Assembly: GCA_901538445.1 (NCBI GenBank)
Contig: LR594584.1
Location: 2,283,738-2,347,737, forward strand
Reading direction: 5' to 3'
Source of the DNA: Gemmataceae bacterium
GTDB taxonomy: Bacteria; Planctomycetota; Planctomycetia; Gemmatales; Gemmataceae
DNA: 64,000 nucleotides
The notes beneath the pieces were generated by a model. The model had not been told where the DNA came from and searched no databases. It saw only the letters and a program-made list of their open reading frames with translations. The translations under genes and the position numbers were made by a program. Positions 9,479 to 30,337 of this stretch are shown here, one piece after another. How positions within the stretch are numbered: position 1 is the stretch's first letter; the number at the start of each line of letters is the position of its first letter.

Positions 9479-10051
9479 TCACTGCTTCGGGATCTGCACG
9501 CCGCGCTTGCGGAGCGCGTCCTCCAGCTTCGCGCGATCGGTCTTCGCGGGGTCGATCAGGGCCGTCACCTTCCCGTCCTTGAAGCTCGCCGTGGCCTGCG
9601 CCACGCCGTCGAGGCGGGCGATGCCCTCGTACGCGGCGAGTTCGCACGCCCGGCAGTCGAGCCCGCCGACGGCGATCACCACCCGCTCGAACTTGTCGCG
9701 GGGGCCGGCGAGCCGCGGGCCGACCCCGAACGTGCTGTGCGACTCGGCCCGCACCTTCTGGTCGAGCCGCTCCACGACCTGCTCCGGCTTCGCCCCAGGG
9801 AACACCTTCGACGGGACGAACTCGACCGTGACCTCCGCGGCGTCGAAGCTCACCGAGACGAGCGTGACGCCGGCGATCTCCTTGAAGTTCTCGCGGAGGT
9901 CCTTCTCGCGGTCCGGCACGAACAGCCCGTACACGCGGTACGTGAACTGCTCGGCCTTCGGCTCGGGCTTCTTGTCCTTCTCTTGCGCGGCCGCCGAGCA
10001 CAGGAGCAGAGCGGTGCCGGCTGCGATCGCGATACAACGTGCGGTGGTCAT
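9479..10051 (-). CDS. Secreted protein with two heavy-metal-associated-like domains
   Basis: This 190-aa protein has a signal peptide (1-22). Two ferredoxin-like HMA-type units follow, about 36-105 and 122-190. The second keeps a metal-site-like GLDCRAC (Cys133, Cys136) and the typical 'LDGVAQATASFKDGKVTALI' strand pattern. The first has no cysteines and so cannot bind metal in the usual way. HMA domains bind Cu(I) or related soft metals. A periplasmic one could chaperone copper to the cytochrome or copper proteins encoded nearby, but this is inference. It is 28 bp downstream of the interrupted DUF1592 gene on the same strand. Confidence 0.6.
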   Translation of the reverse strand: MTTARCIAIAAGTALLLCSAAAQEKDKKPEPKAEQFTYRVYGLFVPDREKDLRENFKEIAGVTLVSVSFDAAEVTVEFVPSKVFPGAKPEQVVERLDQKVRAESHSTFGVGPRLAGPRDKFERVVIAVGGLDCRACELAAYEGIARLDGVAQATASFKDGKVTALIDPAKTDRAKLEDALRKRGVQIPKQ

Positions 10052-10079: not shown

Positions 10080-12692
10080 TCAGCGGGTGCGGAACAGCGT
10101 GCTCTGCACCAACTCGTGGATCAGCGTGCGGGTGCCGCCGCCGCTCTTGTTCGCAGCGGCCACGACCGCGGCGACGTCTTCGCGGTCGCCGAACGCCGCG
10201 CCGCGGGCCGTCGCGTACACCGCGAACTGCCGGGCCAGGTTGGTCAGCAGCGCGTCGCGGTCCGCGGCCAGGAGGGTCTGGAACTCTTCGAGGCCGGAAA
10301 AGGCGCGACCGTCGGGCAGCGTGCCGCTCGAATCGACCTTCGGCCCGAGCTTGAACCCGATGCCGATGAACGGGTCGATGGTCCCCCGCGGGGCCGGGTC
10401 GCCGGTGCCGAGCGACCGGTACCGCGACCGGTGCCCGCCGATCACGTCGAACTCCTCCAACGCGAACCCGGGCGGGTCGATCTTCGCGTGGCACGACGCG
10501 CAGGCCGCGTTGTTCCGGTGCTTGTCGAGCAGCTCGCGGATCGTGGTGGCCCCGCGGACGTCCGGCTCGACGGCGGGGATGTTCGGCGGCGGTGGGGCCG
10601 GCGGCTTGCCGAGTAACCGGTCGAGGACGAACGCCCCGCGGGGCACGGGCGAGGTCGTCGTGCCGTTGGCCGTCACCTTCAGCACGGCGGCCTGCGTGAG
10701 GAACCCGCCGCGGTGCGAGCCCGGCGGAAGCGCGACGCGGCGCACCTGCGTGCCGCTCACCGCGGGCAGCCCGTAGTGCGCCGCGAGCCGGCCGTTGAGC
10801 ATCGCGAAGTCGCCCTTCACGAGGTAGTCGGCCGTCAGGTTCTTGTCGATCAGCTCGCGGAAGTACGCCCGCGACTCGGCGAGCATCGAGTCTTCCAGGT
10901 ACTTGTTGAACTCGGGGTACAGCTTGCGGTCCGGGTCGTTGGCGGCGATCTGCCGGAGCTTGAGCCACTGGCCCAGGAAGTCCTCGACGAACCGGTTCGC
11001 CTTCGGGTCGGCGAGGAGCCGCTCGACCTCGGCCCGGAGGACGTCGGGCTTGCGGAGCGTGCCGGCGGCCGCGAGCTTCAGCAGCGCGTCGTCGGGGGTC
11101 GAGTTCCAGAGGAAGTATGACAGGCGGTCGGCGAGGCCGTGGTCGTCGAGTTCGCCCGCCGGCTCGACGTGGTACAGGAAGTCCGGCGAGCAGAGCGCCG
11201 CACGGTACGCCTACCGCATCGCCAGCTCGAAGCAGTCGCCGGCCTTGAGCCGGTCGGCCACGCGATCGACGTACTGCTTGCGGACGTCGGCACTCACCGG
11301 CCGCCGGAAGGCCCGTGGCAAGAAGTCGGCCAGGAGCTTGTCGGCGTCGTCGAGCGGCTTCTCGGAGTGGACCGTCCAGAGGCCCGGGATCGGGTCCGGC
11401 TTGTTCCGGGCCATGAACAGTTGCTGCCGGTCGGGATTACGGGCCGGCGGGCGGACGCCGGGGTGGGCCTTCGGGTCGAACTCCTTGATCGGCAGGTCCC
11501 CGAACAACCGCCGGTGCCCGAGCGGGGGCCACGAGTCGTGGATCGGCCCCTCGATCTCGAAATAGTCGCACGCGATGGCGGGGCCGGTGAACCCCATCGC
11601 GCGGTCCTTTCCGCGGGTGTGCGCGTGCGCGAGCGACGCGGCGTTGAACCCGAGCGTCTCCCGCGGGTTCAGCCACGTCGTGACCTCGTGGACCTTCTCG
11701 GTGATCGACGGAGCGTCGAGGTACGTCAGCACCGTGCTCGGGTGCCCGCCGCCGCGGCCGTCCCCGGTGAGCTGCACGACCGACAGCCGGGCCGCCTCGG
11801 TGCCGCGGGACGGCAGCACCTTGCCCTTGTCCCACTGGAAGCTCCACAGCGGCGTCGTGAGCTTGTACCGGCCGGGGTAGATGGCGACGAACTCGTTGAA
11901 GTACGGGTGAAACGACTCGTCCTCGGTGCGGAACAGGCCGACCGACGCGCCGCTGCGGAACGAGCCCATGCGCTCGTGCGCGCCCTGGTCGATGTGCTCG
12001 TGCGCGCCGGCCGGCGGGAAGTCCGGGTCCGGCTTCTTGTTCTTGAGCAGCACGCCGTCGCCGTGCATCAGCACGTGCGCGACGAACCCCGACGGGTACG
12101 CGAGCGACGTGCGGAACTTGTCGGGCTTCGGGGCGCGCGGCCGGGTCGCGATGGCGACGTCGAGCACGCGGTCGGCGGCCTCGAAGTACTTCGCGAGGTT
12201 GACGTGCGACAGGTCGAGCGCGTCGCCGTTCTTGTCGAACCCGTGGACCTGTCCGTCGGCCGGGAGGTCGATCTGGAGCGGGAGCCCGGGGAGGTCGAAC
12301 AGGTCGCGGATGGTGTTCTCGTACTCGACGCGGGTGAGCCGCCGCAGTTGCGGGCGGCCGTCGCGGGCGGCCGCCTTGCGCTCGGCGGCGATCAGGTCGT
12401 CGCGGACCGCCTTCACCGCGGCGGCGAGGTCGGCGGCGTCCGGCCGCGGCTTCTTCTTCGGGGGCATCTCCCCGCTGGCAACGCGGTCGTGGATGGTGAC
12501 CCACTTCGCGGCGTTCTCCGGATCGGTTGGGGTGAACTTGAGCGACGTGAGGTCGAGCCCGCCCTGCTTCGCGTCGGCATCGTGACACGCGACGCAGTGC
12601 GCCTCGAAGAACTTGACCGGCGGCGCGGCCCGCAACGGGGCGGCGAGCGCCAGGACCGCGCAAGCGGCGATGAGTGTGGTGCGGGTGCGCAT
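10080..12692 (-). pseudogene. DUF1592-family secreted cytochrome protein, interrupted by an in-frame TAG
   Basis: Read through the stop, the gene encodes 870 residues, the usual size of proteins with the DUF1587-DUF1595-DUF1592-DUF1588-DUF1585 array. The N-terminal part (11211-12692, 493 aa) has a signal peptide (1-22), a heme site CVACH (33-37) and the DUF1587 segment 'LRRLTRVEYENTIRDLFDL'. It stops at TAG (11211-11213) inside the highly conserved 'FELAMR-x-AYRAALCSP' region. The same frame continues without another stop to 10080, covering DUF1592, DUF1588 (second heme site CASCH) and DUF1585. There is no frameshift, only one nonsense codon. The DUF1552 gene upstream is the usual partner. 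The change could be a real recent mutation, a sequencing error or readthrough. The start is the ATG at 12692. Confidence 0.85.
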
Positions 12693-12781: not shown

Positions 12782-14038
12782 TCAGACCATCTCGAGGCCG
12801 CGCATCGTGCCCTTGCCCGTAGAGAACTCGCGGACCTCCATGCCGAGCCGCTGGAGCATCGACACGAACAGGTTCGTGAGCGGGTAGTTGTTGGTGGTGT
12901 CGAACGCGAGGTGCTGGCCGTGCTTGAACCCGCCGCCGGCGAGCAGCACCGGCAGGTTGTTGTTCGAGTGCGAGTTCGCGCTGCCCATGCACGTGCCGTA
13001 CAGCACCATCGTGCGGTCGAGGAGCGTGGCGTCTTGCTCCTTGACGCTCGACAGGGACTTGAGCAGCCCGGCGAGGGAGTCGAACTGGCCCGACTCCTTG
13101 GCCTTCAACTCCGCGAGCACCTCAGGCCGGTTCCCGTGGTGCGTGATGTTGTGGATCACAGTCGTGTCCACGAAGATCGTCACCAGCCGGGTCGAGTCGG
13201 TTTCGAGGGCGAGTTTGACGGTGTCGAACATGATCTGCATCTGGCGGGCGAACTCGCGGCCGTCCTTCTCGTCCTCGGGCGGCTTGGCGGTCACCTTCGG
13301 CTTGTCCTTCTGCTCCCACGCCTCGGACGCGGCGAGCCGCTGCTCCAGGTCGCGGACCGAGCTGAAGTACTGGTCGAGCCGCTGCTTGTCGGCCGGGGCG
13401 AGCGAGCCGTTGAGCCGCTTCGCCTGGTCGCCGACGAAGTCGAGCGTGCTGCGGCCCTGGCGGAGCGCTTCCACCTGCGCGGCGACTTCGGCCGGCTTGC
13501 CCTGAACGAACAGCTTCTCGAACAGCTTCCGCGGGCTGCGCTCGATCGGGATCGGCGCGCCGCTGCGGGTGTAGCTGAGCGTCTGCCCCTCGTTCCCGCA
13601 GCCGAGCACGAGCGACGGGTAGCGGGTCTTCGGCCCGAGGTGCTCGGCCGCGAGTTGATCGACGGACACCCAGTTGCGGAACCCGCCCCGCTCGGGGTGC
13701 GGGGTGCCGGTGAGGAAGCACTTCTCGGCCGCGTGCCCGCCGGTCACGCCCGGGTGGCTCACGCCCGAGAACACCGTGAGCTGGTGGCGGAACGCCGCGA
13801 GCCGCTGCAGGTACGGGGTCGCGACGTAGTCTTTGCCGGCCTTCTCGGGGAAGAAGAACTGCGGCAGGATGCCCATGTTCGTTTCGATGCCGATCATGCG
13901 CCGCGGGGTCTCGGCCTTGTCGGCGGCGAACGCCGGCTGCATCGCGTCGAGCAGCGGCAGGGCCATCGCGACGCCGGTGCCGCGGAGGAACGTGCGGCGG
14001 GACAGCGCGCGGGGCGTCGGGAGGAGTGCGGGCGTCAT
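12782..14038 (-). CDS. DUF1552 family secreted protein (partner of DUF1592 protein)
   Basis: The ATG at 14038 gives 418 aa beginning with a Tat signal ('LSRRTFLRG', then a hydrophobic stretch ending near AFA). The body matches DUF1552: 'SGVSHPGVTGGH' near residue 95 corresponds to the histidine-rich signature of the family. 'VLYGTCMGSANSHSNNNLPVLLAGGG' is its conserved C-terminal block. The family is abundant in Planctomycetes and Verrucomicrobia, almost always beside DUF1592 proteins, and its biochemical role is unestablished. Tat export suggests folding or cofactor loading before secretion. The partner gene downstream is broken by a stop codon, so this protein may currently lack its full-length partner. 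Confidence 0.88.
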   Translation of the reverse strand: MTPALLPTPRALSRRTFLRGTGVAMALPLLDAMQPAFAADKAETPRRMIGIETNMGILPQFFFPEKAGKDYVATPYLQRLAAFRHQLTVFSGVSHPGVTGGHAAEKCFLTGTPHPERGGFRNWVSVDQLAAEHLGPKTRYPSLVLGCGNEGQTLSYTRSGAPIPIERSPRKLFEKLFVQGKPAEVAAQVEALRQGRSTLDFVGDQAKRLNGSLAPADKQRLDQYFSSVRDLEQRLAASEAWEQKDKPKVTAKPPEDEKDGREFARQMQIMFDTVKLALETDSTRLVTIFVDTTVIHNITHHGNRPEVLAELKAKESGQFDSLAGLLKSLSSVKEQDATLLDRTMVLYGTCMGSANSHSNNNLPVLLAGGGFKHGQHLAFDTTNNYPLTNLFVSMLQRLGMEVREFSTGKGTMRGLEMV

Positions 14039-14139
14039 GGTGGCGACGGGTGTGTTGGGGGCGGAGTCGGGGCGGGAGTGACGCGGGCAGGTGGTCTCAA
14101 CTGTCGCACGGGCGCTGGGGCGGGTCAACAACATTCTCA

Positions 14140-14161
14140 CCGCGGTCGTGTTCGACCGCGG
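14140..14161 (-). terminator. Terminator-like hairpin after the SnoaL-like gene
   Basis: CCGCGGTCG (14140-14148), loop TGTT, CGACCGCGG (14153-14161): a perfect 9-bp stem with a tetraloop, 57 bp past the stop at 14219 and 101 bp before the DUF1552 start. Confidence 0.55.
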
Positions 14162-14669: not shown

Positions 14670-17600
14670 TTATTTCAGCGTCACCAGGTACTCGATCAGG
14701 TCGCGCATCTCGCGCGGCGTGAGCGTGCGATCGACGGCGGGCATCGGCGACAGCGCCGCCGAGCGCCGCTCGATCTCGTCGGCCGGCACGGTGTGCTTCT
14801 TGCCGTCGGGGGTCTGCACGACGAGCATCGACTTGTCCTCGGACACGAGCGTGCCGCCCAGCACGCGGCCGTCCACGAGCGTGAGCGTCACCGTGCCGAA
14901 GCCGGCGGCGATCTTGGCGCTGGGGAGGACGAGCGATTCGAGAATGTGCTCGCGCGTCCTGGTCGGGTTCCGGGTGGCGACCTGCGACAGGTCCGGGCCG
15001 GCGGTGCCGCCCACGCCCTTTACCGTGTGGCACCGCACGCACTGCGCCGCGGTGTGGTTGAAGAACACCTCCCGGCCGGCCTCGGCGTCGCCGCCGGTGA
15101 GGCTCACCTGGAACTTGCCGACGGGGTCTTTGGGCAGCGCGTCTTCGAACTTCAGCCGCAGCCGGTCGCGAACGGGGGAGGGCGTCGCCTTGAGCGCTTC
15201 GAGCACGTCCACCTGAAGATCGACCGGCACCTCGCCGGCCGCGAGGCGGTACGTCCACGCGTCGAGCACGCGGCCGGCGGCGGGCGTCTTCGTCGCGGCG
15301 ACCGCCGCGATGGCCCGCTGGCGCTCGCGGGGCGCGGCCTTGTCGTCGGCGAGCACCTCGTCGAGCAGTGGAACGCCGCGGGACGGGTCGGCCTTCGCGA
15401 TCAGGTCGCGGGCCTCGGCGCGAACCAGCGGCGACGTGCTCTTGAGCGCCGAGGTCAGCACCGTCTCGGCCTGCTTCGACTTGCGGCCCGCGAGGAACCG
15501 CATCGCCGCGACCCGCAGGTTCGGGTCGGCCTTCGCGTCGTCGGCGAGCGCGACGAACCGCGCCTCGTCGGCCCTCGCACCGACCGCGACGATCAGCCCG
15601 ACCGCGTCGGCCTGGAGCCTCCCACTTGTTCCGGTGAGGAGCGTTTCGAGGCCGTCTTCAACCACGCCGCGAACGACGAGCGGCTCGCGGGGCTTCTCGG
15701 CGCGCCAGAAGCCGGTGACGCGGTCGCGTGGCGGAGGGCTCGTCCAGTCTCGCAACGCGCCAAGCGCCTCGGCCCGCACCGCGGTCGAGAGGACTGGACT
15801 GGTCACGGCGGCGAGAACGGCCTTCGCGTTCTCAGACCCGCCGAGGCGGTAGTTCGCGTTGATCGCCCGGCGGGCGAGAGGGTCGGCGTCCGGGATCGGC
15901 GACGCGAGGAGTTTCGAGAGTTGCGACGCGAGTTGCGGGAGCAGGTCGTCCAGCGGCAGGTCGTGAATCGCGCGCGCCGCCTCCGTGCGTACCAGCGGAT
16001 CGGCGTCATCGAGGAAAGCCGCGAGGCGCGCGTCGCTGAGCCGCCGTTGCACCAGAACCACGGCCATCCGCACTGCGGGGCTGGCGTCGGTCGAGCGGGC
16101 CGCGACGCTGTCTGCATCGCCGATCCGGGTGAGCGCCGCGACGCACGCGTGCCGCAGGAACGGGTCCTCGTCCTTGTTCGCCTTGAGCGCGTCGAACAGC
16201 GGCCCGACCGCGGCCTTGAATTTCAGCTTGCCGAGTGACTGCGCTGCGAAGAACCGCACGCGGGCGCTCGGGTCGGTGAGCCGCTCGACCAGTTTGGGTG
16301 CGGCCGCGCCGTTGCCGGCGTCGCCGGTGAGCTTCGCGGCCTGCGCGCGGACCTCGTCGTCGGCGTCCGCGAGTTGAGCGGTGATCGTGGCGACCACCGC
16401 CGGGTGCGTGCGGGCCAGTTGCCCGAGCGCCCACAGCGCGTGGATGCGCGCGAGCTGGGTGTCGTTCTTGACCGCGGTCTTCTCCAGTTGGCTCCGGACG
16501 CCAGCGTCGCGCCCGTACCCGGCGAGATCGACGAGCGCAAACTGCGCCCTGAGTCGGACGCGCTGATCGGCGTGCCCGAGCAACTTCACGAGTACTTCCG
16601 GCTTGAGCTTGTCGAATCCTTCGGCGAATAACGTCTTCGTCTCCTTCACAACCGGGTCTTCGATCTTGGCGGGGTCGAACGCGGTGTAGATGCGGCCGCC
16701 GAGGCTCTTGCCGCCCCAGTCGAGGTTGATGAAGTCGGAGATGTACAGCTTGCCGTCGTACCCGAACTCCGCGTCGGTCGCCTTGATCGGCTTGAGGAAG
16801 TCGTGGTAGTCCTCGACCTCGAACCCGGCCCCCTTCGGCCTCACGCGGAACGCCTCCAGCCCGGCCCCGGGGCCGCTGGTGTAGTTGCACATGATGAAGC
16901 TGTTCTTGTACCGGTCCGGGAGGCTGGTGCCGCTCGTGAACAGGAACCCGCTCGGGCCGGTGCCGATCTTGCCGACCGGCGGGACGATGTACGCCGGCTG
17001 GCCGGGGTGCGGCAGGTGCCACAGCCGCTCGGCGAACCACGGGCCGGCCGCGTACGGGCTCGGGATCGTCTGGTACGGCATGTTCCAGCCGGTGTCGCCG
17101 CCCTCCACGACGTACACGAGGCGGGCGTGGTCGCCCTTGTCGCAGTTGTTGTCGTCCGCGAACAGGTTGCCGTACTGGTCGAACGCGAGTTCCTGCGGGT
17201 TCCGCAGCCCGCGGTGAACCACCTCGAACTCGGTCCCGTCCGGGTTGCACCGGAACACGGCCCCGGTCCGCGCCCCGCTGAACTGCTTGCCCTCCTTGCT
17301 CGTCACGTCGAACCCGCGGTCGCCGACGCTGAAGTACAGTTTGCCGTCCGGCCCCCACGCGAGCCCGTGCAGGTCGTGGCCGAGGAACGCGCAGTTCACG
17401 CCGAACCCGGTGAGCAGCGCCTCGCGTTTGTCGGCCCGGCCGTCGCCGTCGGTGTCCTTCAGCTTCCAGAGGTTCGGGATGCAGGTGAAGTACACGTCGC
17501 CGTTGGTCGCCATCACCCCGGCGGCGAGTCCGTCGAGCGGCGCGTTGAACCCGCCGGCGAACACGGTGCTCCTGTCGGCGACCCCCTTGCCCTTAGTGTC

Positions 17601-18050
17601 TTCGAGGAGCCGGATCTGGTCGGCGTGCTTGCTGAACCACTTCATCCCGCCGTCGAACTTGCTCGCGTGCTTCTTGAACATCGCGAGACGGTCGCTGAGC
17701 GTGTTCACCTGGAGGTCGTCGTCGAGAAGGAACCCGCGGGAGCGGTTCTCCTCGGTCCCCTGGTTGAACCGGTACTCCTCGGCGACGAACACGCGGTTCT
17801 TCTCGTCGAGCCCGATGGCGACGGGGCTGGCAAGCATCGGCTCGGCCGCAAACAGCTCGACCTTCACGCCGGCGGGCGCGCGGAACGTTGGGATCTGCTT
17901 GCGGGCCGCGTCGGTGCCGTCGGGCAGGGTCGGCTCGGTGACCGGCTCGAGCAGGTCCGCGGATCGCGGGGCCGGTGCGGGCTCGACGGCCAGTGCGGCG
18001 GTGAGGGCGAACAACAGCGCAGCAGGAGCGGCGAAGCGAATGGAGCGCAT
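14670..18050 (-). CDS. PVC-type membrane-bound dehydrogenase/HEAT-repeat/cytochrome c protein
   Basis: This 1126-aa secreted protein starts at the ATG at 18050, which is followed by a signal peptide (1-21). Residues about 45-465 form the beta-propeller of the 'membrane-bound dehydrogenase domain' family, related to PQQ/NHL sugar dehydrogenases, with blocks such as '[24 protein letters not shown]'. Residues about 480-960 are HEAT-like helical repeats. The C-terminus is the PVC-type heme domain with CVRCH at 1004-1008 and the characteristic '[15 protein letters not shown]' segment. Such proteins are thought to oxidise sugars in the periplasm and pass electrons to an attached cytochrome c; the substrate is not known. 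It is divergent from the ECF sigma gene at 18218 across about 170 bp. Confidence 0.9.
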   Translation of the reverse strand: [1126 protein letters not shown]

Positions 18051-18177
18051 GGCGGTGTTCGGAGAGGGTCGGGTGGTGAGGGAGCCCGCCGGAGGAGAGG
18101 TCATCATACCGTAAGCTCGGGCGACCGCCAGACGCTGCCGGCCGACACCCGCAGGGCGGCGACCGGGTACACCCTCC

Positions 18178-26588: not shown

Positions 26589-29585
26589 TCAGTCCACGAA
26601 CACGAACTCGTTCAGGTTCAGGATCACCCGGCAGGCGTTGGCGAGCCCGTGTTCCTTCGCGTAGGCGGTGAGGGCGTCCAGCTCCTTCGGGGTCGGGGCG
26701 CGACCGAACGCGAGGCGGACCGCGGCGGTGACGCGGCCCGCGTCGTCGGCCGCGAGCTTCTCAACCCGCTCGGCGAAGTGCTTCGCCATCGCGACCGCGA
26801 GCTTGTTGTTCAGGAGCGCGAGCGCCTGTTGCGGGGTCAGCGTCTGGTTCCGCTTCTCGACGGCGAGAGACGGGTCCGCACAGTCGAGCGCGACCATGAA
26901 CGGCTGTTGCTTCGAGCGCACCGTGAACCGGTACACCGACCGCCGGTGCGACTTCGCGTCCTCCGGGTCGTGGAGGTGGTACTGGTAGTGCGGCGAGTGC
27001 TCGGGGTGCTCGACGACGAAGTCCTTGAAGCTCGGGCCGCCCATCGTCAGATCGAGCTTGCCGGCGACCGACAGGATCGAGTCGCGGACCGCCTCGGCCT
27101 CCAGCTTGCGGCGGTTCTGCCGCCACAGGTAGCGGTTGTCGCTGTCGAGCTTGGCGTTCGCCTCGTTCGCGGCCGACGCCTGCTTGTACGTCTTGCTCGT
27201 CACGATCAGCCGGTGCAACTTCTTGAGCGACTGGTGATCTCGCAGTTCGGCGGCGAGGAAGTCGAGCAGTTCGGGGTGCGTCGGCAGTTGGCCCATCTTG
27301 CCGAAGTCGCTCGGGGTGTCGACGATCCCGCGGCCGAAGTGGTACTGCCACACGCGGTTCGCCATGACCCGCCAGGTGAGCGGGTTGTCCGGCGACGCGA
27401 TCCAGTTCGCGAGCGCCGCGCGCCGCTCCCCCTCGGAGTGGCCTGCGGGCAGGTCGAAGGTGCCGTTCACGCCGGGGATCGCGCGGATCGCACCCGCAGG
27501 AACCTCCTTGCCCGGCCGCGTCACGTCGCCCCGCGAGAGCACGAAGATCGGCCGCGGCGCGCCACCCTTGCCCCCGGTCCCGATGAAGTTCCCGCCGCCC
27601 GTGTGGACCGCGCCGACGTAGGCCCGGCGGCGGGTACCCGCGAGTGCCGCGAGTTCGGCATCGAGCTTGCGGACCTCGGCCTCGGCCGCCGCCAGCCCGG
27701 CCGCGTTCGCGTCTCCGAGCCCACGCTTGAGGAGGGTGTCGCGTTGGTCCTTTAGCTTGTTGAGTTCCGGCGCGCTGAGCGCCGGCCCCGGCGGGTACAG
27801 TCCGTCGGTGACATTGGTGAGCCCCCACCGCGGGCCGACCTCGATCGAGTCCACCGCGGTCGCCTTCTTCCCGGCGGCCCGGTTCTTCCCGTCGGCGGCG
27901 TACACCTCCAGCTCGGCGAGTGCCAGGAAGAACTCTTCCGGCAGGCGGGGCGCGAGCTTGGTCGCGGTCACCCGCACGTACCGGCCGGACTTCCCGGCCC
28001 CGGCGGAGGCGGTGAACGCGGCGGTGCCGGGGTTGGGGAGGTCGCTCCCGGTCTGATCCACAAGGGGAACCGCTGTCTTGAAGTCCGCGTCGTCCGACGC
28101 CTCGACCTTGAACCGGGGGGGGAACCCGAAGCCCGCACCGATCTTGTTGAAGTCGTCGGAGCACGGCCGCAGCACGACCCGGTCGAGCTTCACCCTCTCG
28201 CCGAGGTCCACCTGAACCCACTTCACCACGTCCGGCTTGGCGGCCAGCACCGAGTGGTAGCCGTGCTCGGCCGGGGCCGGCTTCGAGCCCGCTTTGCCAC
28301 CGTCCGCGATCCGGCGTTCGACCTCGACCAACTCCGCCCCGGCGGCCTTGCGGGCAGCGGCGAGGAGCGCCCCGGCGCGCCCGGAGGCCGCCGCCTTTTG
28401 CGCCTCCAGCTCGGCCCGCCGCGTGGCGACCTTCGGGTCCGTGTCGTACAGCCGATCGGTCCGGTCTACGGCCGCGAACACCGCCTGGAGCCGGTAGTAG
28501 TCCTCCTGCGGGATCGGGTCGAACTTGTGGTTGTGGCACTGGGCGCAGCTCACCGTCAGGCCCATGAAGGTGCCGATGGTGTTGGCGACCATGTCGTCGC
28601 GGTCGAGGTGCCGGGCCACCTTGCCGTCGACCTTCGACTCGGGCACCTCGATGTGACCGATCAGGTCCCACGGCCCGGCGGCCAGGAACCCGAGCGCCTC
28701 GATGCCGTCCACCGTTCCCGGGAACAGAACGTCGCCCGCGACCTGCTCCTTCACGAACCGACCATAGGGCTTGTCGTCGTTCAGCGAGCGGATGACGTAG
28801 TCCCGGTACGGCCAGGCGTTCGGCCGCGGCTGGTCCTTGTCGTACCCGTGCGTCTCGCCGAAGTGGACGACGTCGAGCCAGTACCGCGCCCACCTCTCGC
28901 CGTACTGCGGCATCGCGAGCAGCTTCTCGACCAGCCGCTCGAAGGCGTCCGGGGCCGGATCCTTGACGAACGCTTCGACTTCTTCCGGCGACGCGGGCAG
29001 GCCGATGAGGTCGAAGTACAGGCGGCGGATGAGGGTCCCGCGGTCCGCCTCGGGTGACGCAACGAGCCGCTTCTCGGCGAGCTTGGCGGCAACGAACGTG
29101 TCGATCGGGTTCGCCCCGGCGGGCACGGTCGGCTTCGCGATCGGCTTGAGGCTCCACCAGTCGGCCGGGTTATCGGCCTGCCCGTCGTTCGGCCACTTCG
29201 CGCCCTGCTCGATCCACCCCCTGAGAGTCGCGACCTCGGCGGCCGTGAGCCGCTCGCCCTTGGGCGGCATCTTCGTGTCATCGGTCGCGACCACCCGGTG
29301 GATCAGGAGGCTCTCGGCCGCCTTCCCCGCGACGAACGGACTGCCCGACTCGCCGCCCTTGAGCGCGTCGGCCCGACGGTCGAGCCGCAGGTCGCCGCGC
29401 TGCTTGTCCGGGCCGTGGCACGAGAGGCAGTGCTTCGCGAGGATCGGCTTCACGTCCCGGTCGAACTCGACCCCATTTGGGTCGGCGGCCGGCACCCCCC
29501 GGGCCTGCTGTGCGAGGGGGAGCCGGACCAGCAGGACCGCAGCGGCCGCGACGATAACGAGCGGGACGGTGGCGGGACGGAGCAT
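26589..29585 (-). CDS. Secreted cytochrome c / DUF1549 / discoidin-like / DUF1553 protein
   Basis: The ATG at 29585 gives 998 aa; upstream frame is not needed. Signal anchor or peptide at 1-26. PSCyt1-type cytochrome domain with CLSCH at 53-57, then DUF1549 (about 155-370) with a second heme site CAQCH at 347-351. An inserted F5/8 type C (discoidin)-like domain (about 441-600) has 'GYHSVLAAKPDVVKWVQVDLGE' and 'FPPRFKVEASDDADF'. DUF1553 occupies the C-terminal third ('RRKLEAEAVRDSILSVAG', 'ALLNNKLAVAMAKHFA'). The protein is probably periplasmic or surface-bound. The discoidin segment is clearly related to both ectodomain repeats of the histidine kinase encoded two genes upstream. Gap to the regulator gene 98 bp, to the DUF1501 gene 58 bp. 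Confidence 0.9.
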   Translation of the reverse strand: MLRPATVPLVIVAAAAVLLVRLPLAQQARGVPAADPNGVEFDRDVKPILAKHCLSCHGPDKQRGDLRLDRRADALKGGESGSPFVAGKAAESLLIHRVVATDDTKMPPKGERLTAAEVATLRGWIEQGAKWPNDGQADNPADWWSLKPIAKPTVPAGANPIDTFVAAKLAEKRLVASPEADRGTLIRRLYFDLIGLPASPEEVEAFVKDPAPDAFERLVEKLLAMPQYGERWARYWLDVVHFGETHGYDKDQPRPNAWPYRDYVIRSLNDDKPYGRFVKEQVAGDVLFPGTVDGIEALGFLAAGPWDLIGHIEVPESKVDGKVARHLDRDDMVANTIGTFMGLTVSCAQCHNHKFDPIPQEDYYRLQAVFAAVDRTDRLYDTDPKVATRRAELEAQKAAASGRAGALLAAARKAAGAELVEVERRIADGGKAGSKPAPAEHGYHSVLAAKPDVVKWVQVDLGERVKLDRVVLRPCSDDFNKIGAGFGFPPRFKVEASDDADFKTAVPLVDQTGSDLPNPGTAAFTASAGAGKSGRYVRVTATKLAPRLPEEFFLALAELEVYAADGKNRAAGKKATAVDSIEVGPRWGLTNVTDGLYPPGPALSAPELNKLKDQRDTLLKRGLGDANAAGLAAAEAEVRKLDAELAALAGTRRRAYVGAVHTGGGNFIGTGGKGGAPRPIFVLSRGDVTRPGKEVPAGAIRAIPGVNGTFDLPAGHSEGERRAALANWIASPDNPLTWRVMANRVWQYHFGRGIVDTPSDFGKMGQLPTHPELLDFLAAELRDHQSLKKLHRLIVTSKTYKQASAANEANAKLDSDNRYLWRQNRRKLEAEAVRDSILSVAGKLDLTMGGPSFKDFVVEHPEHSPHYQYHLHDPEDAKSHRRSVYRFTVRSKQQPFMVALDCADPSLAVEKRNQTLTPQQALALLNNKLAVAMAKHFAERVEKLAADDAGRVTAAVRLAFGRAPTPKELDALTAYAKEHGLANACRVILNLNEFVFVD

Positions 29586-29683
29586 CGGTCTACTCGCGGC
29601 GAGGAGCGAACGGGCGGAGTTGAAGGAAAGGTAACCCACGAACGAGCGCCCCCGCATCCCGCAATCACGGGACGGGCGAGTGT

Positions 29684-30337
29684 TTAGACCAGTTTCTCTT
29701 TCAGCGCCTTGGCCACGGCCCCCGAGCGCGTGTGGACGTGGAGCTTCTCGTAGATGTTGCGGATGTGCGTATCGACCGTGTGAACGCTGAGGTCGAGTTC
29801 CGAGGCGATCTCCTTCTTGATGAGCCCCTGGACCATGAGGTCGAGTACCCCGCGCTCGCGCTCGGTAAGCCCGTAGTCCGCCGGCGGGGGCGCGAGGCGC
29901 GTGAACATTTCGAGAACGCGCCGCGCGATCCGCCCGTTCATCGGCGACCCGCCGGCCAGCACGTCCCGGATCGCCGCGGTGATCTCCCCCACCGGGGACA
30001 TCTTGAGCAGGTAGCCCGTGGCCCCGGCACAGATCGCCCGAAAGATCTTGTCCTCGTCCTCGAAGACCGTCAGGACGATGATCCGCACCCCCGGTGCGGC
30101 CGCGACCAATCGGGGGATGCCGTCGAGCCCGCTCATTCCCGGGAGGCCGATGTCCAGGAGGATCACCCCCGGGGGCTCGCGGCTCGTGGCCAGCGCCGCG
30201 AGCGCGTCCTCGCAGTTGGCGAATGCCGCCGGGCAGGCGAGTCCCGGGGCCGCGTCCACCACCCGCATGATGGCGCGCCGGTACGAGTCGTTGTCCTCGA
30301 TCGTCCACACGCGGGCCGGTTGTGCAGCGGTCACCAT
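29684..30337 (-). CDS. NarL/LuxR-family response regulator
   Basis: This 217-aa two-domain regulator has a receiver domain (1-125) with acidic residues in 'TIEDND', phosphorylatable Asp62 in 'ILLDIGLPG', Thr in 'VLTVFED' and Lys112 in 'YLLKMSP'. A LuxR-type helix-turn-helix follows (about 152-212, 'LTERERGVLDLMVQGLIKKEIASELDLSVHTVDTHIRNIYEKL'). It starts only 4 bp after the histidine kinase stop, so the two are translationally linked and form a two-component system. The likely targets are the co-directional genes downstream, beginning with the discoidin-containing cytochrome gene. Confidence 0.95.
   Translation of the reverse strand: MVTAAQPARVWTIEDNDSYRRAIMRVVDAAPGLACPAAFANCEDALAALATSREPPGVILLDIGLPGMSGLDGIPRLVAAAPGVRIIVLTVFEDEDKIFRAICAGATGYLLKMSPVGEITAAIRDVLAGGSPMNGRIARRVLEMFTRLAPPPADYGLTERERGVLDLMVQGLIKKEIASELDLSVHTVDTHIRNIYEKLHVHTRSGAVAKALKEKLV

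What the first reader, a model, noticed from the sequence alone, without database searches (positions are those of the whole stretch)
11211..11213. Single in-frame amber codon splits an otherwise intact DUF1592 gene
The frame is open on both sides of TAG for 493 and 376 codons, with all expected domains and both heme motifs in place. The codon falls in the conserved FELAMR-x-AYRAALCSP segment. A single C-to-T or G-to-T change from CAG or GAG would give it. No other decay is visible, so it is either very recent, an assembly error, or tolerated by readthrough.
Basis: seen in the sequence. Interest (0 to 1): 0.55.

Follow-up and report, generated by a model that had tools for sequence, protein, structure and literature searches.

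The report
Single stop codon in cytochrome gene
One gene for a planctomycete-type cytochrome protein carries a single stop codon where relatives have tryptophan, most likely a very fresh loss-of-function mutation (or a base error in the assembly) in a dispensable gene, and is ordinary.

Summary
In detail: TAG at 11213-11211 (minus strand) is codon 494 of an otherwise open 870-codon gene (12692-10080) with PSCyt1-DUF1587-DUF1595-DUF1592-DUF1588-DUF1585 domains. The guessed origin is wrong: the column is TGG in 6 and TAC in 2 of 8 same-genus orthologs, and TGG in 51 of 80 tree rows, so the stop arose from TGG by one G-to-A change, not from CAG or GAG. It is private: 9 of 19 genomes of the genus gave an ortholog, and only this one has the stop. 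The stop cuts the DUF1595 domain, and the next in-frame start lies 109 codons on, inside DUF1592, so a working split gene is unlikely. No decay is measurable elsewhere in the gene. None of 81 tRNA genes found has a CUA anticodon; RF1 is present; TAG is a usual terminator. Best reading: a very recent nonsense mutation in a dispensable gene (0.6). Main rival: a base-call or consensus error (0.27). Functional readthrough is not excluded but has no direct support (0.08). Ordinary, of a known kind.

The parts
10080..12692 (-). interrupted gene, 870 codons plus TGA, planctomycete-type cytochrome c protein (PSCyt1-PSD3-PSD5-PSD4-PSCyt3-PSD2)
11211..11213 (-). in-frame TAG, codon 494; TGG (6) or TAC (2) in the 8 same-genus orthologs found
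11163..11345 (-). PSD5 / DUF1595 domain, residues 450-510, spanning the stop
12456..12596 (-). PSCyt1 domain, begins with the first heme motif CVACH (12582-12596)
   Evidence: motif read
12150..12344 (-). PSD3 / DUF1587 domain
10767..11150 (-). PSD4 / DUF1592 domain, downstream of the stop; the first in-frame start codon after the stop (10886) lies inside it
10425..10712 (-). PSCyt3 / DUF1588 domain with the second heme motif CASCH (10488-10502)
   Evidence: motif read
10092..10313 (-). PSD2 / DUF1585 domain
12782..14140 (-). upstream neighbour, DUF1552 (HXXSHH) protein; ORF as listed, the true start may lie further in
9479..10051 (-). downstream neighbour, 190 aa with a heavy-metal-associated (HMA) domain

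Best explanation
A very recent nonsense substitution, TGG to TAG, in a gene that has no second close copy but is dispensable: a pseudogene at the moment of its birth. Translation should end after 493 residues (signal-like N-terminus, first cytochrome domain, DUF1587, a cut DUF1595), and the second heme domain is lost. Shown: the stop in the assembly, its ancestral codon, its restriction to this genome among those searched, absence of measurable decay, no suppressor tRNA found. Inferred: that the base call is true, that RF1 ends translation there, and that the product does not work.
For: The codon is TGG in 6 and TAC in 2 of 8 same-genus orthologs and TGG in 51 of 80 tree rows; the smallest well-supported group around the gene has 8 rows: 5 TGG, 2 TAC and this TAG (SH-like 97). 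9 of 19 genomes of the genus gave an ortholog at E 1e-250 and only this one has the stop; the 10 without are 92-99% complete: the gene is dispensable and the change is private. The best other matches in this genome are near-full-length paralogs at 47-48% identity, among 22 DUF1592 matches. RF1 present, just over its cut-off, 423.8 against 423.25 bits. TAG ends 72 of 507 coding ORFs of at least 100 codons in 800 kb, the finding's own stop counted. No CUA anticodon among 80 ARAGORN tRNA genes plus tRNA-Sec; no PylS over its cut-off. Against 17 chosen orthologs, 2 of 300 otherwise invariant columns are changed, as few as in intact orthologs (1 to 21); rough bound: free evolution for at most about 2-5% of the end branch. 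The first in-frame start after the stop is 109 codons on, inside DUF1592.
Against: The lack of any decay is equally what a base error or a still functional readthrough gene would show. No second strain, reads or expression data. The genome is a 95% complete, 4-contig assembly of unstated technology. How many other genes of this genome are broken by a single stop was not well measured.
Confidence: 0.6

Rival explanations
1. The TAG is not in the living population: a base-call or consensus error in the assembly, or a minority allele picked into the consensus.
For: A single private substitution with no other decay is exactly what an error looks like. 192 of 7821 single-base changes in this gene would give a stop; by my arithmetic, ten wrong bases per megabase would make about two false stops in a genome of 7.86 Mb.
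Against: No frameshift-like site in the 158.5 kb of 800 kb that had homologs to compare; the control genome G002 gave 24 in 218.2 kb, many among repeated copies of its own genes, which I take for mobile elements without testing it. 1 of 123 SBP_bac_10 matches has an interior stop and 0 of 22 DUF1592 matches, though that domain lies wholly after the stop here. These speak to indels and gross errors, hardly to single substitutions.
Confidence: 0.27
2. Tolerated readthrough: UAG is decoded at low level by a near-cognate tRNA (tryptophan or tyrosine would suit the column), giving a reduced amount of full-length protein, possibly as an intermediate on the way between TGG and TAC.
For: No relaxation of constraint after the stop: dN and dS against L024 are 0.115 and 0.635 after it, 0.147 and 0.533 before it. 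The column is W or Y in all 8 same-genus orthologs, and the 4 TAC rows fall in 3 separate places on the tree; TAG is one of the two single steps between TGG and TAC, and the other, TGC (Cys), was not seen in 110 loci. Belinky et al. 2021 (PMC7918605: abstract, passages and Results part 1 of 2 read) argue that such stop intermediates are common in bacteria.
Against: No CUA tRNA and no PylS found; RF1 present; TAG is a usual terminator. No other genome examined shares the stop, the criterion that Belinky et al. required. Absence of decay is expected from recency alone.
Confidence: 0.08
3. A true split into two separately translated proteins.
For: Both halves are open frames with coding-like codon usage.
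Against: The stop cuts the DUF1595 domain; the first in-frame ATG/GTG/TTG after it is at 10886, inside DUF1592; the downstream part would lack the N-terminal signal (inference); 78 of the 79 other tree rows show no stop in the aligned stretch, and the one in L140 lies elsewhere.
Confidence: 0.02

Closest known systems
In-frame stop codons in bacterial genes (Belinky et al. 2021, PMC7918605; abstract, passages and Results part 1 of 2 read)
   Same: Single in-frame stop in a conserved gene with signs of purifying selection on both sides; their stops persist only for short times; a stop may be the intermediate of a double substitution.
   Different: Their cases had to be shared at the same position by two or more genomes; this one is in 1 of the 9 genomes of the genus that gave the ortholog.
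Recent single-nonsense pseudogene (general knowledge, recalled)
   Same: One substitution, no other lesion, dispensable gene with distant paralogs.
   Different: No difference found; strain comparison and expression data are missing.
Planctomycete-specific cytochrome c genes of the PSCyt3 type (PMC5615132; passages and section 13 read)
   Same: Domain kinds; the paper says PSCyt3-encoding genes usually stand next to a family of unknown genes, that nothing is known of their functions, and that some carry carbohydrate-binding modules.
   Different: This copy carries an internal stop.

Membership tests
PSCyt3-type planctomycete cytochrome protein (PSCyt1-PSD3-PSD5-PSD4-PSCyt3-PSD2) | all six Pfam domains over their curated cut-offs, in order, on the protein with the stop masked | tested here: met
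PSCyt3-type planctomycete cytochrome protein (PSCyt1-PSD3-PSD5-PSD4-PSCyt3-PSD2) | two CxxCH heme motifs | tested here: met
   read directly in the translation
PSCyt3-type planctomycete cytochrome protein (PSCyt1-PSD3-PSD5-PSD4-PSCyt3-PSD2) | adjacent DUF1552 gene (pairing recalled, then checked) | tested here: met
   a DUF1552 relative lies in the same fetched stretch in 80 of 89 related loci
nascent pseudogene by nonsense mutation | stop absent from orthologs, sense codon one substitution away | tested here: met
nascent pseudogene by nonsense mutation | relaxed constraint or further lesions (expected only with age) | tested here: not met
   2 of 300 invariant columns changed, no other stop in the gene
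nascent pseudogene by nonsense mutation | stop present in reads and in the living strain | not testable with these tools
   no reads, no second strain
conserved stop-codon readthrough (Belinky et al. criterion) | same stop in two or more genomes | tested here: not met
   0 of 8 other same-genus orthologs, 0 of 79 other tree rows
amber suppression or pyrrolysine recoding | tRNA with CUA anticodon, or PylS | tested here: not met
   0 of 81 tRNA genes found (ARAGORN was run on the stretches around the Infernal matches, not on the whole genome); PylS profile 26 bits, under its cut-off, while 13 of 14 control genomes also match and 1 passes
genome-wide TAG reassignment | RF1 absent and TAG not used as terminator | tested here: not met
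   prfA just over its cut-off; TAG ends 72 of 507 ORFs in 800 kb, the finding's own counted

The most novel reading that the evidence does not exclude
The gene still works: UAG, at a column that is W or Y in all 8 same-genus orthologs, is read at useful efficiency by near-cognate Trp or Tyr tRNA, catching in the act a TGG-TAG-TAC double substitution through a stop intermediate.
Probability: 0.06. Interest if true: 0.45.

Novelty: already known. Interest (0 to 1): 0.12.

Why it matters
Little by itself: isolated private nonsense substitutions are expected in any genome. It would matter only if full-length protein were shown, since the column holds TGG in some and TAC in other close relatives and this genome carries a codon that is a direct intermediate, which would make the 'stop intermediate' idea testable at one named site. 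For annotation, the gene should be flagged as disrupted rather than called as two genes.

Tried and rejected
CAG/GAG origin: rejected. Suppressor tRNA: the places of all 76 RF00005 matches were fetched in 47 stretches and rescanned with ARAGORN (80 genes), plus tRNA-Sec; 3 weak Infernal matches (L097-L099) gave no ARAGORN gene. A script that looked for CUA anticodon loops in these and other fetched loci listed 25 chance-like places, none with a T-loop after it.

Genome-wide rate of internal stops: tried with a codon-usage decoder (167 candidate stops in 800 kb of this genome, 155 in 800 kb of G002), a local-score filter (it listed 5 stops of this genome and missed the known one, so I do not use it), homologs spanning the stop (only the known one of 167; I did not count how many candidates had any homolog) and tblastn (15 stops listed in this genome; I read the other 14 as shadow-frame or antisense alignments or single chance matches and did not test each). 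So the rate of other disrupted genes is not well measured.

Codon counts: one search examined 110 loci, including the window's own, distant paralogs and 4 pairs that look like one record fetched twice (L025/L104, L027/L105, L028/L106, L029/L107; judged from equal identity and coordinates). Of 89 loci of the ortholog group, one search dropped those 4 and 6 partial ones (L160, L175, L176, L179, L180, L182), giving 79 rows plus the window gene. L141 was read as CAC and GAG, because different aligned pieces were used. One search kept the best 80 of 224 relatives. One search used 17 chosen orthologs, not all. The tree is FastTree only, used for placement. One search counted neighbours anywhere in the fetched stretch, and some stretches are short.

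Papers: DUF1592+DUF1587 gave one paper, on Pseudomonas putida, seen in the listing only; DUF1592+DUF1552 gave none; 'planctomycete' + 'stop codon readthrough' gave two, listing only. Searches were further searches; of PMC13092985 (tRNA-Trp with short anticodon stems) I saw the listing and three passages, and it concerns UGA, so I did not use it.

Full report
Observation. The minus strand of the window holds a gene starting at ATG 12692 and ending with TGA at 10082-10080. It is open for 493 codons, has TAG at 11213-11211, and is then open for 376 codons. The coding signal does not change at the stop: GC3 is 0.961 before and 0.963 after, and a decoder that ignores stops sees one segment, 12701-10071. 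With the stop masked by X, six Pfam domains pass their cut-offs in order: PSCyt1, PSD3, PSD5, PSD4, PSCyt3, PSD2. PSD5 spans the codon: cut at the stop it reaches only 27.3 bits against a cut-off of 34.2, whole it reaches 58.9. The first-stage observation is right in its structural details.

What was there before. In 8 same-genus orthologs (75-81% identity) the codon is TGG in 6 and TAC in 2. In 110 loci of all degrees of kinship, look-alike duplicates and paralogs included, it is TGG in 58. In an 80-row tree it is TGG in 51, TAC in 4 and TAG only here; the smallest well-supported group around the window's gene has 8 rows, 5 with TGG and 2 with TAC. The stop thus most likely came from a tryptophan codon by one G-to-A change (C-to-T on the plus strand).

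How old and how widespread. A search of the 19 genomes held for the genus found the ortholog, at E 1e-250, in 9, and the stop only in this one. The 10 without it are 92 to 99% complete, so the gene can be done without. Against 17 chosen orthologs, the window's protein departs from 2 of 300 columns that are invariant in the others; those 17, each treated in the same way, depart from 1 to 21. If the gene had evolved freely along its whole end branch, about 134 to 268 departures would be expected for an end-branch dS of 0.2 to 0.4, so free evolution is limited to roughly the last 2-5% of that branch (a rough Poisson bound, since the end-branch dS is my estimate from the pairwise value with L024 and the tree). 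dN against L024 is no higher after the stop than before. The change is therefore very recent, or the gene is still under selection, or the base is wrong.

Can it be read through? RF1 is encoded; its match is only just over the cut-off, 423.8 against 423.25 bits. TAG ends 72 of 507 coding ORFs in 800 kb of this genome, the finding's own stop counted, so it is an ordinary terminator. Among 80 tRNA genes found by ARAGORN in the stretches around the 76 Infernal matches, and one tRNA-Sec with anticodon UCA, none has a CUA anticodon. PylS does not pass its cut-off. A dedicated suppressor was thus not found; leaky near-cognate decoding cannot be tested from sequence. Belinky et al. 2021 (PMC7918605; abstract, passages and Results part 1 of 2 read) argue for frequent tolerated in-frame stops in bacteria, but admitted only stops shared by two or more genomes, which this one is not in what I searched. 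Their other argument, double substitutions through a stop intermediate, has an echo here: TGG and TAC both occur in the genus, and TAG lies between them. One case cannot decide that.

Could the two halves work apart? The stop falls inside PSD5, and the first in-frame start codon after it is at 10886, inside PSD4. A re-started product would lack the head of that domain and the N-terminal signal (inference). Of the 79 other tree rows, 78 show no stop in the aligned stretch and one, L140, has a TGA at another position.

Is it an error? No frameshift-like site was found in the 158.5 kb of 800 kb of this assembly that had homologs to compare (24 in 218.2 kb of the control genome G002), 1 of 123 SBP_bac_10 matches has an interior stop, and 0 of 22 DUF1592 matches. 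This makes a grossly error-laden assembly unlikely but says little about single substitutions. Without reads the question stays open, and I give it 0.27.

Context. The gene stands between a DUF1552 gene and a small HMA-domain gene, all on the minus strand. In 89 related loci, some of them short or fetched twice, a DUF1552 relative lies in the same stretch in 80 and an HMA-protein relative in 68. PMC5615132 (passages and section 13) says that PSCyt3-encoding genes usually stand next to a family of unknown genes and that nothing is known of their functions. The function of this protein family is not settled by anything here.

Verdict. A private, very young nonsense substitution in a dispensable planctomycete cytochrome gene, or a base error that looks the same; an ordinary event of a known kind.

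Noticed in passing
L053:2519-4841 (G000:C3:1106518-1108840) and L054:3955-5030 (G000:C2:1021954-1023029), outside the window: Two dense tRNA arrays of 21 and 9 tRNA genes, together covering 18 amino acids (not Ile or Cys) beside the genome's dispersed tRNA genes; array members score 36-65 bits against RF00005, the best dispersed one 78. The larger array has DNA matches in 19 of 19 genomes of the genus searched, this one included, partly as short pieces, so it looks like an old second tRNA set.
   Followed up: partly
window 9479-10051 and 12782-14140: The DUF1552 - DUF1592 pair has a third partner just downstream, a small protein with an HMA metal-binding domain (signal-like N-terminus by eye); a relative lies in the same stretch in 68 of 89 related loci. 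A possible clue to a metal or redox function of the pair.
   Followed up: partly
window 14673-18107 (-): Next gene upstream of the cluster: 1145 aa with DUF7133 and GSDH matches, HEAT repeats and a cytochrome c match.
   Followed up: no
window 26592-30308 (-): A planctomycete-type cytochrome gene of another class (PSCyt1-PSCyt2-PSD1, with an F5/8 type C match just under its cut-off) in the same window.
   Followed up: no
G000:C3:2125400-2125493 (L100): tRNA-Sec with anticodon UCA, so this genome probably makes selenoproteins.
   Followed up: no
L140:7000: A relative of the gene in a record titled 'uncultured Verrucomicrobiales bacterium' has its own single interior TGA, at the position of residue 340; the window gene has a TGG codon there.
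   Followed up: no
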